DNA from: Alphaproteobacteria bacterium
Lineage (GTDB): Bacteria; Pseudomonadota; Alphaproteobacteria; Rhizobiales; Beijerinckiaceae
Assembly: GCA_016869435.1 (NCBI GenBank)
Contig: VGEB01000021.1
Coordinates: 1 to 33,605 of the forward strand
Length of the DNA stretch: 33,605 nt
Direction of reading: 5' to 3'
The notes under the pieces were generated by a model. The model had not been told where the DNA came from, did not search any database, and saw only the letters and a program-made list of their open reading frames with translations. Both the position numbers and the translations under genes were made by a program. This document shows positions 5,113 through 16,579 of the stretch, piece after piece (the first letter of the stretch is position 1; each line of letters begins with the position of its first letter).

Positions 5113-5321
5113 GCGACGACCTTGCTGGCGATGGCTCTCAGACGAACTAGGCGTTTTCAAGCAAGTGACAAGGGCGATCCAGGCGACAGCGTCTGCGCCG
5201 TCGAAAAACGGCTGCAACTTGGCGAACATTGACCGTCTTCAGTGGTTCGGGGCGCCCATCTAATGGATCGAGCTGCGCGTCGCGCGGCTGAAAGGACCTA
5301 ATCCAAACCAGCGAGTTGGCG
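5113..5321. promoter_or_regulatory. Divergent promoter region, SRPBCC-LOV operon and hydroxylase gene
   Basis: About 210 bases separate the two divergently transcribed units and must contain both promoters. No strong consensus -35/-10 pair or extended palindrome stands out. Short open frames here lack ribosome sites. A regulator acting on both genes would bind in this interval. Confidence 0.4.
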
Positions 5322-9720: not shown

Positions 9721-10821
9721 ATGCGGCCCCCTATGGCCGATAAGGCCGCCATGACCGCCAGTCCGAAACCGCAGACGCCGGCCGCCGCGTCCGGCGTCTC
9801 CACCGCCGTCGTCGCCGAGGACGAGGCGGGGATGCGGATCGATCGCTGGTTCAAGCGTCGCTATCCAACGCTCGCTCTGTCGCATCTCGCCAAAATCTGC
9901 CGAAAGGGCGAGGTGCGCGTCGACGGCAAGAGGGTTGAAACCTCGACGCGGCTCGAAGAGGGCCAGAAGGTTCGTGTGCCGCCCTTGAGGATCGAGGCGC
10001 CGGCCCCCGCAGTTCGGCCCGCGCGGCCAGGCGACGCGCAAGCCCTGCAGGCGATGACTCTTTTCGAGGACAAGGATGTCCTCGTGCTCAACAAACCATA
10101 CGGCCTCGCGACGCAGGGTGGTTCAGGTCAAACCCGCCACATCGACGGCATGCTGGAATCGCTCGCTAAGGGCGATACGCGGCCGGTGCTGGTGCATCGC
10201 CTCGACCGCGACACGTCAGGCGTGCTGCTCGTCGCCAAAAACCGGAGGATGGCCGCCGAACTTGGCGAGATTTTTCGTTCGCGGCAGGCCAAGAAAATCT
10301 ATTGGGCGCTTGTCGAAGGCGTGCCAAAGCCAGCGCAGGGTCGCATCTCGCTTTATCTCGCGAAAGGCGCCGGCATGGAAAAATCGAGGGGCGGCGCGAG
10401 GGAGCTTGAGAAAATGCGCGTCGCCAAGCATGGCGAGTCCGACGCCCAGCATTCCCTGACCTATTACGCCATCGTCGACAAGGTGGCGCCGCGTTGCGCC
10501 TGGCTGTCGATGAAGCCGCTGACTGGCCGCACGCATCAGCTTCGCGCGCATGCGGAGGCGATCGGCCACCCGATTTTTGGCGATCCCAAATATGGCCATC
10601 GCCCCGACGACGAGGTCCGCAGGCGCGATCCGCTGCGGGCGATGCCGGAGGGACTCGAGCGCAAGCTGCATCTGCTCGCGCGGCGGCTGATCTTGCCGCA
10701 TCCCAAAGGCGGCGTGATCGACGTGACCGCGCCGCTGCCCGACCATATGGAAAAAAGCTGGGAGCTTTTCGGCTTCGACGTGAAGCGCCCCGACCCGATC
10801 GAGGACGCGCCGGACGCGTGA
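9721..10821 (+). CDS. RluA-family 23S rRNA pseudouridine synthase (RluC-like)
   Basis: The 366-residue protein isomerises specific uridines in RNA to pseudouridine. It has an N-terminal S4 RNA-binding domain (MRIDRWFKRRYPTLALSHLAKICRKGEVRVDGKRV), then the RluA catalytic core with HRLDRDTSGVLL near residue 160 (containing the catalytic aspartate). Further family motifs are VLNKPYGLATQGGSG and TGRTHQLRAHAEAIGHPIFGDPKYG. The RluC/RluD branch fits best; the exact 23S position is not deducible. The start is uncertain: ATG codons at 9721, 9733 and 9751 are in frame and none has a strong ribosome site. In relatives this gene lies just upstream of ATP12. Here the two are separated by about 2.1 kb of inserted and duplicated DNA, and a broken second copy lies at 12731-12910. 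Confidence 0.93.
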   Translation: MRPPMADKAAMTASPKPQTPAAASGVSTAVVAEDEAGMRIDRWFKRRYPTLALSHLAKICRKGEVRVDGKRVETSTRLEEGQKVRVPPLRIEAPAPAVRPARPGDAQALQAMTLFEDKDVLVLNKPYGLATQGGSGQTRHIDGMLESLAKGDTRPVLVHRLDRDTSGVLLVAKNRRMAAELGEIFRSRQAKKIYWALVEGVPKPAQGRISLYLAKGAGMEKSRGGARELEKMRVAKHGESDAQHSLTYYAIVDKVAPRCAWLSMKPLTGRTHQLRAHAEAIGHPIFGDPKYGHRPDDEVRRRDPLRAMPEGLERKLHLLARRLILPHPKGGVIDVTAPLPDHMEKSWELFGFDVKRPDPIEDAPDA

Positions 10822-10822
10822 G

Positions 10823-10930
10823 GCGCCTTCGCTCGCGACAGGCTCGCCGCCACGCTCGCGGCGGCCGAGGGCGTCATGTTCGTTGAACAGCCGCAGGAGG
10901 CGCGGGGCGCACTGCGTGCGCTGTGCGGCA
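10823..10930 (+). pseudogene. Fragment of a duplicated ATP12 chaperone gene
   Basis: Starting one or two bases after the pseudouridine synthase stop, about 100 bases align closely with the internal part of the intact ATP12 gene at 13403-13510. Shared stretches include GGCGTCATGTTCGTTGA and CAGCCGCAGGAGGCGCGGGG. Scattered substitutions and a small deletion near its end show that it is an older, decaying copy. The junction with the upstream gene tail falls in the short shared sequence CGCCTT, suggesting a deletion through microhomology. It has no start and cannot make a protein. Confidence 0.85.
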
Positions 10931-10942
10931 TGATGCGGGGGA

Positions 10943-11191
10943 TTACTTTTTATCGCCCTCTATGGGTCCAAAGGGTGCAATTGGCGGATTGGAGTATGGT
11001 CCTCGATAGGGTTGCTCCGTAGTTGGAGGCGCACGATCTTCGCGCACCTCCACGCTGTATAGGCGTTTATCCGGATCAATCGGGACAACTCCGTATGACT
11101 CGTTGAGGTCCTCGACGGCGACGCCCAACTGGGCTGCCGCCTCCGCTAGGGTAGGCGGCCCGTTGGAGCTCGTAACGGTCATTAACGCCAT
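10943..11191 (-). CDS. Small protein resembling the subtilase propeptide region
   Basis: This 82-residue, mostly polar protein follows the subtilase by 24 bases on the same strand. AAAGGA lies seven bases before its ATG, so it is very likely co-translated. Residues 13-30 form a predicted helix (TLAEAAAQLGVAVEDLN), followed by a proline-rich tail. I see no membrane segment or signal peptide. By eye, residues 29-74 align with residues 43-104 of the subtilase, ahead of its protease domain. LNESYGVVPI matches LDSNFVAVPL, YSVEVREDRA matches FAVRGFLDAE, and YSNPPIAPF matches FADPRIEPF. I infer a detached propeptide-like inhibitor, folding helper or substrate for the protease. An alternative is a ribosomally made peptide precursor cut by the subtilase. 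The family is not recognised. Confidence 0.75.
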   Translation of the reverse strand: MALMTVTSSNGPPTLAEAAAQLGVAVEDLNESYGVVPIDPDKRLYSVEVREDRAPPTTEQPYRGPYSNPPIAPFGPIEGDKK

Positions 11192-11215
11192 ATCGCGTTC
11201 CTTTGGCGAAGCCGT

Positions 11216-12595
11216 TCAGGAAACTCGCTCTTCCGCGCGTTCGCTTACTGCGGCGACGCCGAAGCTTGTCGCTGCCGCCGCGGGATCGATGATTCCAAAG
11301 CCATAATCCGAGTTCCACCCGCGCTGACCCGCGAGAGCCGCGCGCGCGCTTTGCCTCAGAGTCTGGATCATGACGCTCGGCGCGACGCTGCTCAACGCCG
11401 CTTTGGTTCGCAACGCCGCCACACAGCCTGCCGCCACCGGGCAAGCTGCGGACGTGCCACTGTCGGGGGAGCCCACGCCAAACGCCTCTGATCCTTTGAA
11501 ATGCGTGTAGGCGGTGACATCCGGCTTTTCCTGATACATGCCCGGAATAGACGGACCTTGCGATGAATAGCCGACCCGCTTGTCGGTCGTATCGCAACCA
11601 GCGATCGTCAGTACTTCGCTATGGGCGCTCGCGCCCATGATTGTATGTCTCGTTCGGCCCTGACAGCGGCCATCCGCGCAATCCGTTCCGCAGTTGCCTG
11701 CTGCGAAAACAATGTCGGCGCCCGCGCGCGCCAGCGTCGAAACGACGACATTGAAGGGATGGTTCGGATTGTCGAGAAAGCGGCCAGGATGACCGGCCGG
11801 AAAATCCCAACTCGGGTGAAAAATGCCCCAGCTGTTCGTCGAAACGAGCGCTTTATATTTGCGCGCGCCAGTCGGCGAGAAGGCGACGCCCCAATTGACC
11901 AGCAGTTGAGCGAAACCCATCAGAGCGACGCTCAAGAAGCCGCCCATGACGCTGCCGCCAGGCGCGCTTCCTCGCAGAATGGGAAAGTCGAGCAATGTCG
12001 CCTTTGGCGCCGCGATGAGTGCGTCAAACGCGCACATTGTGCCATGTCCGACCGGGTGTGCGCCGGGCGCCGTCGGCACGCCCGGAGCCGACCAGGAATT
12101 TGCGGCGTCGAATTTCGGCGCAAAACCAAGCTTGGCTGTCAGATGAGGAAGGTTGATGCCCGTATCCATCACCGCGATCGCGACGCCATCGCCGCTTAAT
12201 CCCTGGGCCGCGAGCGCAGCAACGTTCAGTTTGGCCGCAACGGCCGCAGCGTCCCCAACTGGAGGCGCGCCGCCGCAGGTGATGAAGGGTTCGATCCTCG
12301 GATCGGCGAAGAGCGGATTTCCGTCGGCCGTCGTTGGAATCGCTTCCGGGCTTTCGGCGTCGAGAAAACCGCGGACCGCGAAAGACTCTGAGCGCTCGGG
12401 CGCGAACGATTCGAGCGCCGGCTTGGCGGCGGCGCCTCCGAGCGGCACAGCCACAAAATTGGAATCCAGGGTAATGCCGCTTGGCGCGCGCGCCCGCGAC
12501 AAGTCAGTCGGCGCCTTGCCTTCGAGGCCGGCGGCCGCCGATTCTTGCAATGGCTCCTGCTTGGGAAGAACGACAATGACGGGAATACGCATCAT
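11216..12595 (-). CDS. Subtilisin-like serine protease (peptidase family S8)
   Basis: The 459-residue protein is a subtilase with the full catalytic set: aspartate 144 in AVMDTGIN, histidine 184 in GHGTMCA, oxyanion-hole asparagine 301 in FAAGNCG, and serine 382 in SGTSAACP. The last departs from the usual GTSMAAP but keeps the GTS core. About 105 residues precede the protease domain and include LFADPRIEPF and TCGGAPPVG. The first residues (MMRIPVIVVLPKQEP) do not look like a signal peptide, so the enzyme is probably cytoplasmic. Cysteines cluster near NCGTDCADGRC (301-311). GAAGGAG lies six bases before the first ATG. The small propeptide-like gene follows by 24 bases. The pair sits opposite in strand to its neighbours and between broken copies of the flanking genes, a sign of insertion or rearrangement. 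Confidence 0.93.
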   Translation of the reverse strand: MMRIPVIVVLPKQEPLQESAAAGLEGKAPTDLSRARAPSGITLDSNFVAVPLGGAAAKPALESFAPERSESFAVRGFLDAESPEAIPTTADGNPLFADPRIEPFITCGGAPPVGDAAAVAAKLNVAALAAQGLSGDGVAIAVMDTGINLPHLTAKLGFAPKFDAANSWSAPGVPTAPGAHPVGHGTMCAFDALIAAPKATLLDFPILRGSAPGGSVMGGFLSVALMGFAQLLVNWGVAFSPTGARKYKALVSTNSWGIFHPSWDFPAGHPGRFLDNPNHPFNVVVSTLARAGADIVFAAGNCGTDCADGRCQGRTRHTIMGASAHSEVLTIAGCDTTDKRVGYSSQGPSIPGMYQEKPDVTAYTHFKGSEAFGVGSPDSGTSAACPVAAGCVAALRTKAALSSVAPSVMIQTLRQSARAALAGQRGWNSDYGFGIIDPAAAATSFGVAAVSERAEERVS

Positions 12596-12730
12596 AAGGC
12601 TCCTTCAAATGAGAAAAAAAAATCGATTGGCTTCGACAACCGTCGCGAATGAAGGCCAAAATGAAAAAACGCGCGTCGTCGAGCAATCGGCTATATAACG
12701 TTTGGCGCGATCACCGGTTCCAGACGAAAG
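12596..12730. promoter_or_regulatory. Upstream region of the subtilase operon
   Basis: These 135 bases are richer in A and T than the surroundings, including an A9 run at about 12613-12621, and separate the subtilase start from the decayed pseudouridine synthase copy. The subtilase promoter should be here. No clear consensus promoter or gene is visible. Confidence 0.35.
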
Positions 12731-12910
12731 GCGCCGGCAGGGAAAAATCGAAGGGCGGCGCGAGGGAGCTTGAGAAAATGCGCGTCGTCGCCAAGCATGG
12801 CGAGTCCGACGCCCAGCATTCCCTGACCTATTACGCCATCGTCACAAGGTCGCGCCGCGTCGCGCCTGGCTGTCGATGACGCCGCTGACCGGCCGCACGC
12901 ATGCGTGAGG
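12731..12910 (+). pseudogene. Fragment of a duplicated RluC-like pseudouridine synthase gene
   Basis: About 175 bases align closely with positions 10367-10541 of the intact gene. Shared stretches include GGCGCGAGGGAGCTTGAGAA and CATTCCCTGACCTATTACGC. A 3-base insertion, two single-base deletions and several substitutions break the frame. After GGCCGCACGCAT the copy jumps straight to the natural end of the gene (GCGTGAGGCGCC), losing about 275 bases. From there it runs into the ATP12 gene. It therefore keeps what looks like the ancestral junction between the two genes. Confidence 0.88.
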
Positions 12911-12959: not shown

Positions 12960-13772
12960 ATGTCTAAGGAGCCGACCGGCATCGACGCCGATTTCTTCGT
13001 CCCCGACGCCGAGCGCGACCCGGTGAAGGCCGCGCGCGACCCGGCGCGGGCCCTTCCGAAGCGCTTCTACAAAGAGGCGGTCGCCGCGCCGACGGAAGGC
13101 GGATACGGGATTTTCCTCGACGGCCGGCGGGTCAATACGCCGGCGAAGCGTCCGCTGGTCACGCCTTCGCGCGCGCTCGCCGAAGCGCTCGCCGGCGAGT
13201 GGGGGGGCCAGGGCGAGACGATCGATCCAGCGACGATGCCCCTGACGAAGCTCGTGAACACAGCGCTCGACGGGGTTGAGGCGCAAATGGCCGAAGTCGA
13301 AGCCGAGGTCGCCAAATATGCTGCTTCGGACCTCGTCTGTTACCGCGCTGGCGAGCCGGAAAGTTTGGCCGCGGCGCAATCCGCAGCGTGGGATCCGCTC
13401 GTCGCCTTCGCCCGCGACAGGCTCGGCGCCAAGCTCGCGCTGGCCGAAGGCGTCATGTTCGTTGAGCAGCCGCAGGAGGCGCGGGGCGCTATCGCCTGCG
13501 CCCTGCGCGCATATGTGGGCGAGGACGCCGGCGCGCCGTTCAGGCTCGCGGCTCTGCATGTGATGACCACGCTCACCGGTTCGGCGGTCATTGCTCTCGC
13601 GACGGCGCTGGGTGAACTGGACGCGGCCAGGGCCTGGGACGCCGCCAATGTTGACGAAGACTGGCAGATGCGCGCCTGGGGCGCGGACGCCGAAGCCATG
13701 GCTCGGCGGGCCGCGCGCTATCGCGAGTTGGACGCCGCCGCGACTGTGTCGCGACTTTCGACGCCGGAGTGA
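12960..13772 (+). CDS. ATP12-family F1-ATPase assembly chaperone
   Basis: This 270-residue protein belongs to the ATP12 family. In mitochondria it protects the F1 alpha subunit before it joins the hexamer; the alphaproteobacterial homologues are assumed to do the same for ATP synthase. Typical features are RFYKEA near residue 35, [34 protein letters not shown]-type sequence (split motif, residues about 46-80), and [14 protein letters not shown]. Later come [24 protein letters not shown] and the C-terminal [17 protein letters not shown] stretch. The start at 12960 (MSKEPTG) has AAGGA six bases upstream; ATG codons at 12945 and 12957 are alternatives. It follows a decayed copy of the pseudouridine synthase gene and precedes the nuo operon. 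Length and motifs are intact. Confidence 0.93.
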
Positions 13773-15679: not shown

Positions 15680-16137
15680 GTTGGCAGTCGGCAGTCGGCG
15701 ATCGGCAGTAGGACAAGGGCGATCGTGCCGAGCGAGAGGCCGATAGAAGAGAACATCAGATCGTATCGCGATCTGCGGGTATGGAAGGAAGCGATGGACC
15801 TAGCTGTGGAATGCTACGCTTTGACCAAGGGATTTCCGAAGGAGGAGATCTTTGGTCTGACGTCGCAGATCAGGCGCGCAGCTGCTTCGGTTCCGGCCAA
15901 TGTCGCTGAGGGCTACGGGCGTGATAGCGCAGGCCAATACGTCAATTTCCTGCGCACGGCCCAAGGCTCCTTGAAGGAATTGGAGACACATCTCCTATTG
16001 GCGGAGCGGATCGGCTTGCTCACGTCGAACGCAGTCGAGAAACCTCTCTCCAGATCGGAAGGCGTAGGAAAAATGCTGCGGGGCTTGATCCGATCGATCC
16101 AACGGTCGTCTAGCCCGACTGCCGAAGCCCGACTGCC
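15669..16137 (+). mobile_element. Inserted element with four-helix-bundle gene, framed by GGCAGTCG repeats
   Basis: GGCAGTCG occurs at 15669, 15683 and 15690, and a shortened copy near 15704. The reverse complement CGACTGCC occurs at 16116 and 16130. These inverted clusters enclose a gene for an S23-type four-helix-bundle protein, between nuoC and nuoD, which are normally adjacent. The same kind of protein is known from intervening sequences in 23S rRNA genes. The arrangement suggests a small mobile unit whose ends are short repeat clusters. The transfer mechanism is unknown. Confidence 0.65.
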
Positions 16138-16579
16138 GATGCGGCCGAAGGACGCAAGAAATGACCGACCAGCCCGCCCCCGCTTCACAAGGACTTCGCA
16201 ATTTCAACATCAACTTCGGGCCGCAGCATCCGGCCGCGCATGGCGTGCTGCGCCTCATCCTCGAGTTGGACGGCGAGGTCGTCGAGCGAGTCGATCCGCA
16301 TGTGGGCTTCCTGCATCGCGGCACCGAGAAGCTGATGGAGGCGCGCACCTATCTGCAGAACGTGCCCTATCTCGATCGGCTCGACTATTGCGCGCCGATG
16401 AATCAGGAGCATGCCTTCTGCCTTGCGATCGAGCGTTTGCTCGGCGTCGAGGTTCCGCGTCGCGGCCAGCTCATCCGCGTGCTTTACGCCGAGATCGGCC
16501 GCCTGCTGTCGCATTTGCTCAACGTCACCTCGCAGGCGATGGACGTCGGCGCGCTCACCCCGCCGTTATGGGGCTATGA
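15725..16579 (+). CDS. Four-helix-bundle protein (S23/IVS type), reading through into nuoD
   Basis: The first 120 residues or so match the four-helix-bundle family first described from 23S rRNA intervening sequences. Features are [51 protein letters not shown] (split motif: [25 protein letters not shown]), [23 protein letters not shown], and a last helix ending [10 protein letters not shown]. The start is probably the GTG at 15725. Members usually end shortly after the last helix, but here no stop occurs in the repeat cluster. The frame then runs about 420 bases into nuoD in a different frame, giving 284 codons with an arginine-rich tail of no likely function. The stop was therefore probably lost at insertion or later. 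Relatives with avd-type function assist retroelements; no reverse transcriptase is present here. Confidence 0.75.

What the first reader, a model, noticed from the sequence alone, without database searches (positions are those of the whole stretch)
10943..12595. Cytoplasmic subtilase paired with a stand-alone copy of its own propeptide-like region
The 82-residue protein encoded 24 bases after the subtilase shares three collinear motifs with the subtilase's N-terminal region: LNESYGVVPI/LDSNFVAVPL, YSVEVREDRA/FAVRGFLDAE and YSNPPIAPF/FADPRIEPF. Subtilases are often folded and inhibited by propeptides, but these are normally part of the same chain. A separate gene product built from the same sequence could be an inhibitor in trans, a decoy or a regulated substrate. 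Because the protease has no visible signal peptide, it probably acts inside the cell, where tight control would matter. A two-gene protease/immunity-like or conflict module is possible. Function is inference; the resemblance was seen by eye.
Basis: partly seen in the sequence, partly recalled or inferred. Interest (0 to 1): 0.8.

Follow-up and report, generated by a model that had tools for sequence, protein, structure and literature searches.

The report
Protease with separate propeptide-like partner
A protein-cutting enzyme that seems to work inside bacterial cells has its own built-in safety domain, and a neighbouring small gene encodes a second, stand-alone copy of that domain that probably acts as its lock; the pair recurs across many distant microbes but has not been tested in the laboratory.

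Summary
The 82-residue protein and the subtilase's N-terminal region are homologous: profile-profile E 4.8e-10, score 57 against at most 21 for 200 column shuffles; the front part of the domain and the last-strand motif each match on their own. Plain BLAST cannot see this.

The two-gene unit is real. Of 80 close relatives of the subtilase fetched from genome contigs of many phyla, 69 carry the small gene nearby on the same strand. Searches that start from the small protein mostly lead back to the subtilase. The subtilases keep their own N-terminal domain, so this is not a split propeptide. The one clade seen to have lost catalytic residues also lacks the partner.

Best explanation: a probably cytoplasmic subtilase with a propeptide-like domain in cis, plus a paralogous, probably cleavage-resistant inhibitor in trans. 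No member matches Pfam Inhibitor_I9.

It resembles eukaryotic stand-alone propeptide mimics and SpeB-Spi; the papers I searched showed no bacterial subtilase counterpart. New variant of a known kind.

The parts
11216..12595 (-). Subtilase gene (S8), 459 aa, no evident signal peptide
   Evidence: Peptidase_S8 E 1.3e-19 over residues 135-434; coordinates; N-terminus
12275..12595 (-). Cis propeptide-like N-terminal domain of the subtilase, residues 1-107
   Evidence: profile-profile match to the small protein family, E 4.8e-10 and 2.7e-9
12284..12310 (-). FADPRIEPF motif of the cis domain (last strand)
   Evidence: aligned opposite YSNPPIAPF of the small protein
11294..12193 (-). Catalytic S8 domain, residues 135-434
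   Evidence: Pfam match
12164..12166 (-). Catalytic Asp144
   Evidence: D in 78 of 78 relatives
12044..12046 (-). Catalytic His184
   Evidence: H in 75 of 78 relatives
11450..11452 (-). Catalytic Ser382
   Evidence: S in 76 of 78 relatives
11199..11204 (-). AAAGGA, likely ribosome-binding site of the small gene, in the 24-base gap
   Evidence: sequence upstream of the ATG
10943..11191 (-). Small partner gene, 82 aa, stand-alone propeptide-like protein
   Evidence: family present in 73 distinct loci including the window; homologous to the cis domain
10964..11002 (-). GPYSNPPIAPFGP tail motif of the small protein, presumed to reach the active site
   Evidence: G at +4 after the motif Ile/Val in 45 of 73 and P at +5 in 35 of 73 family members; role inferred

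Best explanation
This is a two-gene protease-inhibitor unit. Gene 1 makes a probably cytoplasmic subtilase whose N-terminal domain occupies the place of a propeptide and probably folds and first silences the enzyme in cis. Gene 2 makes a paralogous stand-alone copy of that domain, which probably binds the mature protease in trans, lays its tail along the active-site cleft and keeps it off until the inhibitor is removed or out-titrated. The cis tail usually carries a hydrophobic residue at the expected cleavage position and the trans tail usually a Gly, often followed by Pro, which would make the trans copy hard to cut. SHOWN by computation: homology of the two domains, conserved gene linkage, retention of the cis domain, conserved triad. 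INFERRED: propeptide fold, inhibition, mode of binding, the cleavage register, cytoplasmic site of action.
For: Profile-profile homology with controls. The small gene lies near the subtilase, same strand, in 69 of 80 subtilase-first loci; over all 73 distinct pairs it is downstream in 69 (median gap 27 bases) and upstream in 4. The clade that lost H184 (3 of 3) and S382 (2 of 3) also lacks the small gene. In L034 the adjacent copy is a broken remnant, but an intact copy lies 4.3 kb away. The distance matrices of small protein and catalytic domain correlate: r 0.84 for 73 pairs; r 0.59, Mantel p 0.0005 for 37 non-actinobacterial pairs. Tail difference: cis +4 is L/I/V/A/F/M in 65 of 80, small +4 is G in 45 of 73. 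No third conserved neighbour was recognised. Published precedents where a stand-alone propeptide mimic inhibits a subtilase (PMC6993865).
Against: No direct evidence of binding or inhibition. No match to Pfam Inhibitor_I9: 0 of 73 small proteins (E up to 1) and 0 of 78 subtilases (E up to 0.1), and hhalign against I9 sequences stays inside the shuffle range. Eleven of 80 relatives lack an adjacent intact small gene; eight of them have an intact triad, so the partner is dispensable for some. G at +4 is missing in 28 of 73 small proteins and P at +5 in 38 of 73. One small gene, L144, has no subtilase of this family within about 10 kb. The dead-protease clade is one evolutionary event, not three. 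Common descent of both genes inside shared lineages inflates the distance correlation.
Confidence: 0.62

Rival explanations
1. The small protein is mainly a folding chaperone in trans, needed to make active protease, with inhibition only a by-product, as ORF2 does for the Aeromonas sobria protease ASP.
For: [quoted passage not shown] Propeptides of subtilases commonly do both jobs (PMC6993865 introduction).
Against: ASP is called propeptide-deficient (title of its ref. 17), whereas these subtilases keep an N-terminal domain of their own. Eight relatives without an adjacent intact partner keep an intact triad.
Confidence: 0.2
2. The small protein is a substrate or precursor that the subtilase trims, releasing the conserved tail or leader as a signal or product.
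For: Conserved short tail of the type GPFSDPRIEPFGP; a gene pair of protease and small protein is common in peptide maturation (recalled).
Against: Conservation is spread over the domain and is shared with the protease's own N-terminus; no conserved transporter or modifying enzyme was recognised beside the pair.
Confidence: 0.08
3. A positive regulator or allosteric subunit: the small protein replaces the cis domain or stabilises the mature enzyme.
For: Same linkage data; two homologous domains per enzyme could form a swap (inference).
Against: No data for it; the stand-alone propeptide mimics named in the introduction of PMC6993865 are described as inhibitors or regulators of a subtilase.
Confidence: 0.07
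4. Chance resemblance and chance neighbourhood.
For: Single-sequence BLASTP sees nothing.
Against: Shuffle, reverse and off-target controls, match without the last strand, 69 of 80 loci.
Confidence: 0.01

Closest known systems
[quoted passage not shown]
   Same: A small separate gene product resembling a subtilase propeptide; SUB1-ProM is encoded in a syntenic locus next to subtilisin-like genes and inhibits SUB1 (PMC6993865; abstract passage, other passages and the introduction read).
   Different: All those named there are eukaryotic. Here the hosts are bacteria and one archaeal MAG, and the partner is recognisably homologous to the N-terminal domain of the neighbouring protease. No I9 sequence match. 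Inhibition untested.
SpeB-Spi of Streptococcus pyogenes (C10 cysteine protease)
   Same: A bacterial protease gene with an adjacent gene for an inhibitor described as a propeptide analogue (passages of PMC2873492).
   Different: Different protease class; the present protease is a subtilase without an evident signal peptide.
ASP-ORF2 of Aeromonas sobria
   Same: Subtilisin-like protease with a partner encoded just downstream that reaches and inhibits the active site (passages of PMC5638518).
   Different: ASP is propeptide-deficient and secreted; ORF2 is a chaperone. Here the protease keeps its own N-terminal domain. ORF2 itself was not compared by sequence.
Intracellular subtilisin Isp1 and inhibitor IPI of Bacillus subtilis
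   Same: Intracellular subtilase with a protein inhibitor (passages of PMC3901451).
   Different: IPI has an Ig-like fold (Pfam PF12690); Isp1 has an 18-residue propeptide. No small protein here matches PF12690.

Membership tests
Subtilase family (Pfam Peptidase_S8) | Match above the curated cut-off and intact Asp/His/Ser triad | tested here: met
   71.1 bits against 21.8; D144, H184, S382 conserved in 78, 75 and 76 of 78 relatives
MEROPS I9 / Pfam Inhibitor_I9 (PF05922) | Sequence profile match | tested here: not met
   0 of 73 small proteins at E up to 1 and 0 of 78 subtilases at E up to 0.1; own genome 0 matches; hhalign E 0.16 (small) and 0.12 (cis), reached by 8 and 3 of 100 shuffles
MEROPS I9 / Pfam Inhibitor_I9 (PF05922) | Propeptide fold: two helices on a four-stranded sheet | not testable with these tools
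   structure prediction interrupted and then switched off; only a compatible order of conserved blocks is seen
MEROPS I9 / Pfam Inhibitor_I9 (PF05922) | Inhibits a subtilase | not testable with these tools
   needs purified proteins
ASP-ORF2 external chaperone system | Protease lacks its own propeptide-type domain | tested here: not met
   N-terminal domain found in the subtilases and homologous to the partner
IPI / BsuPI inhibitor (PF12690) | Pfam match | tested here: not met
   not among the families matched by any of 73 members at E up to 1
SpeB-Spi protease-inhibitor pair | Protease is a C10 cysteine peptidase | tested here: not met
   the protease is S8
Type VII secretion mycosin (TIGR03921) | NCBIfam cut-off | tested here: not met
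   51.1 bits against 278.75
Known anti-phage defence proteins (PADLOC-DB) | Match of the small protein and window subtilase | tested here: not met
   none for P0001, P0002, P0003; the Streptomyces subtilase P0004 matches a 'subtilase' model, E 1.7e-7, over residues 329-434 only

The most novel reading that the evidence does not exclude
A transferable cytoplasmic protease-antidote module: a self-processing subtilase, perhaps gated by its conserved cysteine cluster (C107, C302, C306, C311), is held inactive by a paralogous, cleavage-resistant antidote. Loss of the antidote would unleash broad proteolysis as a dormancy or cell-death response.
Probability: 0.12. Interest if true: 0.85.

Novelty: new variant of a known kind. 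Interest (0 to 1): 0.62.

Why it matters
Subtilases are usually controlled by a propeptide in the same chain. Stand-alone mimics of such propeptides are known one by one from eukaryotes. Here is a whole prokaryotic family of two-gene units in which the homology between the built-in and the separate domain is still readable, so the step from a cis propeptide to a trans regulator can be studied directly. It also gives a testable function to a small protein family that no library searched here recognises and to a group of subtilases that seem to work inside the cell.

Tried and rejected
Single-sequence comparison of the two window proteins: no signal at the N-terminus. Pfam, NCBIfam and PADLOC for the small protein: nothing convincing. 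PDB sequence search with the small and cis profiles: no propeptide. The small profile's best hit (8vd6_A, named CAP REPEAT, E 9.2e-4) is a sum of five weak copies of one 21-position repeat and was discarded; the next has E 0.54; the cis profile's only hit has E 0.49. I9 as a sequence family: tested twice with 22 and 51 sequences, not significant. Phage or viral origin: no relatives in the phage and viral collections. A third conserved neighbour: the widest shared clusters looked like overlapping or antisense shadow frames (judged by eye from coordinates and composition, not tested), so none was accepted; 42 loci were compared, genes were not called properly and a rare partner could be missed. 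Mycosin membership rejected.

Weak points of my own counts. The iterated HMM probably took in two subtilase N-termini (L031, L032, E below its inclusion threshold), so its weak hits to subtilases are not independent evidence; the hhalign tests used only small-protein rows on one side and only cis rows on the other. In one search the second half alone scores E 1e-9, but over 16 columns, that is, the last-strand motif. The cis alignment held 60 rows: of 85 subtilases, those whose start or Asp motif my patterns did not find were dropped, as were the window's duplicate L001 and the distant L005; one search repeats the test with 71 small and 75 cis rows (E 2.7e-9, 55 columns). One cis tail (L004) was misplaced by the pattern and is counted as it fell; L005 had none. 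The 80 genome loci are the best 80 of 110 confirmed relatives of 121 pattern matches, so the rates hold for close relatives only. The genome searches with the small profile scored only part of the first-look candidates (up to 13 per genome, 27, 150, where 8 of the 12 genomes had more), so their counts are lower bounds; one search used a single sequence. The hydrophobicity check is crude: of 22 stretches around I9 domains of other subtilases, not aligned to their starts, only 5 reached the same level. The tree is a quick tree with SH-aLRT support only.

Full report
What is there. The window is contig 21 of a 3.16 Mb draft genome. On its minus strand lie a 459-residue subtilase (11216-12595) and, 24 bases after its stop, an 82-residue protein (10943-11191), each with a plausible ribosome-binding sequence. 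The subtilase matches Pfam Peptidase_S8 over residues 135-434. The small protein matches nothing in Pfam or NCBIfam.

Is the resemblance real? BLASTP of the two proteins finds nothing in the N-terminal region. With families it is clear. I collected relatives of the subtilase from genome contigs (110 confirmed, best 80 kept), two more from plasmid records (L004, L005), and small-protein relatives from a plasmid record and a genome of the same family (L003, L002). The profile of 73 small proteins against the profile of 60 subtilase N-termini gives hhalign probability 96.6, E 4.8e-10, score 57.1 over 78 columns. Controls: 200 column shuffles, best 20.95; reversed profile 12.5; slices of the subtilase beyond the N-terminal domain at most 20.5; all four combinations of actinobacterial and other rows still give E 6.6e-6 or better. 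A repeat with 71 and 75 rows gives E 2.7e-9 over 55 columns. The match is not just the conserved last strand: without it E 4.2e-4 over 41 columns, and the first half alone E 2.3e-4, each with 0 of 60 shuffles as high. The second half alone gives E 1e-9, but over 16 columns that are the last-strand motif itself.

What the domain looks like. The small family reads: strand-like vLlTVrl, helix-like tLedAlreLgL, then D..YGLVpiDP, strand-like LYavrV, a variable stretch, and (v)F.DPrIEPfGP. The cis domain reads MRVLIqL, a variable stretch, LD.sF.PV.lP, a linker, ylVRGeI.dd, a variable stretch and VfaDP.Ie..lTCgG. This order is compatible with the subtilase propeptide fold, two helices on a four-stranded sheet, which PMC6993865 describes also for the stand-alone mimic TgMIC5 (passage); the match is an inference from pattern, and the strand order is recalled. 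Against Pfam Inhibitor_I9 there is no significant match: 0 of 73 small proteins and 0 of 78 subtilases, and hhalign with 51 I9 sequences scores within the shuffle range (8 and 3 of 100 shuffles as high). PMC6993865 notes that three known stand-alone members also lack significant sequence similarity, so this lowers 'it is an I9 protein' but not 'it works like one'. No structure could be predicted.

Linkage. Of the 80 genome-contig loci found through the subtilase alone, 69 carry the small gene in the same neighbourhood; with the window, L002, L003 and L004 there are 73 distinct pairs. All 73 are on the same strand; in 69 the small gene follows (median gap 27 bases, 65 within 150) and in four, two cyanobacteria, a Kuenenia MAG and a Methanophagales MAG, it precedes (gaps of 1, 2, 12 and 325 bases). 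Record titles of the loci span alpha-, beta- and gammaproteobacteria, Magnetococcales, Myxococcales, acidobacteria, Holophagales, Verrucomicrobia, actinobacteria, cyanobacteria, Bacteroidia, Siphonobacter, Kuenenia, Nitrospinota and a Methanophagales archaeon; several are MAGs, whose binning I did not check. Starting from the small protein instead: 4 of 398 genomes of the window's phylum have it, the window's own included, and the other three have the subtilase beside it. In the order of Streptosporangium 66 of 200 genomes have it; of 30 loci examined 27 have the subtilase within 1.5 kb, two have it on the same strand 6.2 and 4.3 kb away, and one (L144) has none within about 10 kb. In the window's family 2 of 149 genomes, its own included, have it by a single-sequence search, a patchy distribution that suggests horizontal transfer. 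Candidate limits make these prevalences lower bounds.

Exceptions and what they say. Twelve of the 85 loci lack an adjacent intact small gene. Whole-genome searches of these twelve genomes or records (one a plasmid record; in eight only the first 150 candidates were scored) found an intact small gene only in the genome of L034; the two weak hits in the genomes of L083 and L044 are the subtilases' own N-terminal domains, which is one more sign of the homology. On a quick tree of 84 catalytic domains the absences fall in five places. One of them, three Methylobacterium sequences, has lost His184 (3 of 3), Ser382 (2 of 3) and the cysteines 107, 302, 306 and 311 (3 of 3): a dead protease without a partner, as expected if the partner serves the active enzyme, but this is one event. 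In L034 only a remnant stands beside the subtilase while an intact copy lies 4.3 kb downstream. The other absences keep an intact triad, so the partner is not indispensable. Distances of the small protein and the catalytic domain run together (r 0.84 over 73 pairs; r 0.59, Mantel p 0.0005, over 37 non-actinobacterial pairs), as expected of genes that travel together.

Mechanism. Step 1 (shown): the protease keeps its own N-terminal domain, so the small protein is an additional copy, not a split-off propeptide. Step 2 (inferred from position and from knowledge of S8 enzymes): the cis domain folds and silences the enzyme and is cut off. Counting from the motif Ile/Val, the cis chain has L/I/V/A/F/M at +4 in 65 of 80, with T/I/V at +5 in 66 of 80; the small proteins have Gly at +4 in 45 of 73 and Pro at +5 in 35 of 73. 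If, as I recall for subtilisin BPN', the last propeptide residue lies four after the equivalent Val, the cis tail has a good cleavage residue and the trans tail a poor one. The register is an assumption. Step 3 (inferred): the small protein binds the mature enzyme and holds it off. The chains start directly on a strand-like motif; 5 of 81 N-termini reach a hydrophobicity of 2.2, each on a short stretch such as MRIPVIVVLP (a crude measure). This suggests action inside the cell, where such a lock would be needed. Rivals are listed with what would refute them.

Comparison with what is known. PMC6993865 (abstract passage, other passages and the introduction read) names three I9 stand-alone proteins and TgMIC5, all eukaryotic, and reports SUB1-ProM next to Plasmodium subtilisin genes. 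PMC5638518 (passages) describes ASP with downstream ORF2. PMC3901451 (passages) describes IPI and Isp1. PMC2873492 (passages) calls Spi, encoded beside SpeB, a propeptide analogue. My searches of the open-access library (listings only except the four papers named) showed no bacterial subtilase with a separately encoded homologue of its own propeptide-type domain; subscription papers and preprints were not covered. I rate it a new variant of a known kind.

Surroundings. The pair interrupts rluC and ATP12, which are neighbours without an insert in 11 of 11 relatives of the genus examined (of 35 other genomes with an ATP12 match). It is flanked by a 118-base partial copy of ATP12 (86% identical) and a 179-base partial copy of rluC (94%), each closer to this genome's own gene than to those relatives. 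The pair was thus probably gained or moved together with a local duplication.

Noticed in passing
window 10807-10910 and 12725-12902: Partial copies of ATP12 (source 13386-13489) and of rluC (source 10361-10536) flank the pair in swapped order; in 11 of 11 examined relatives rluC and ATP12 are directly adjacent. A scar of duplication or insertion.
   Followed up: partly
window subtilase residues C107, C188, C302, C306, C311, C385: Six conserved cysteines (each in 68 to 77 of 78 relatives): C188 is four after His184, C302 next to Asn301, C385 three after Ser382, C107 at the end of the cis domain; C107, C302, C306 and C311 are lost together with triad residues in one clade. Possible metal site or redox switch.
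   Followed up: partly
window 15725-16576, between nuoC and nuoD: A reading frame matching 23S_rRNA_IVP (E 4.3e-36) sits between the complex I 30 kDa and 49 kDa subunit genes and overlaps the start of the latter; just upstream, around 15680-15710, a CGGCAGT-like unit seems to recur by eye, though the repeat finder lists nothing there.
   Followed up: no
L044, L072, L083 (Methylobacterium): Pseudoprotease branch of the family: no catalytic His, Ser lost in two of three, no partner gene.
   Followed up: partly
L034 about 5170-5260 and L146 8404-8937: Broken small-gene remnant beside the subtilase (seen by eye in the frames) and an intact copy 4.3 kb downstream on the same strand.
   Followed up: partly
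A5 subtilases with C-terminal extensions: Four of 78 relatives match a PPC domain and one a CARDB domain, domains usual in secreted proteins (recalled), which sits oddly with the lack of an evident signal peptide.
   Followed up: no
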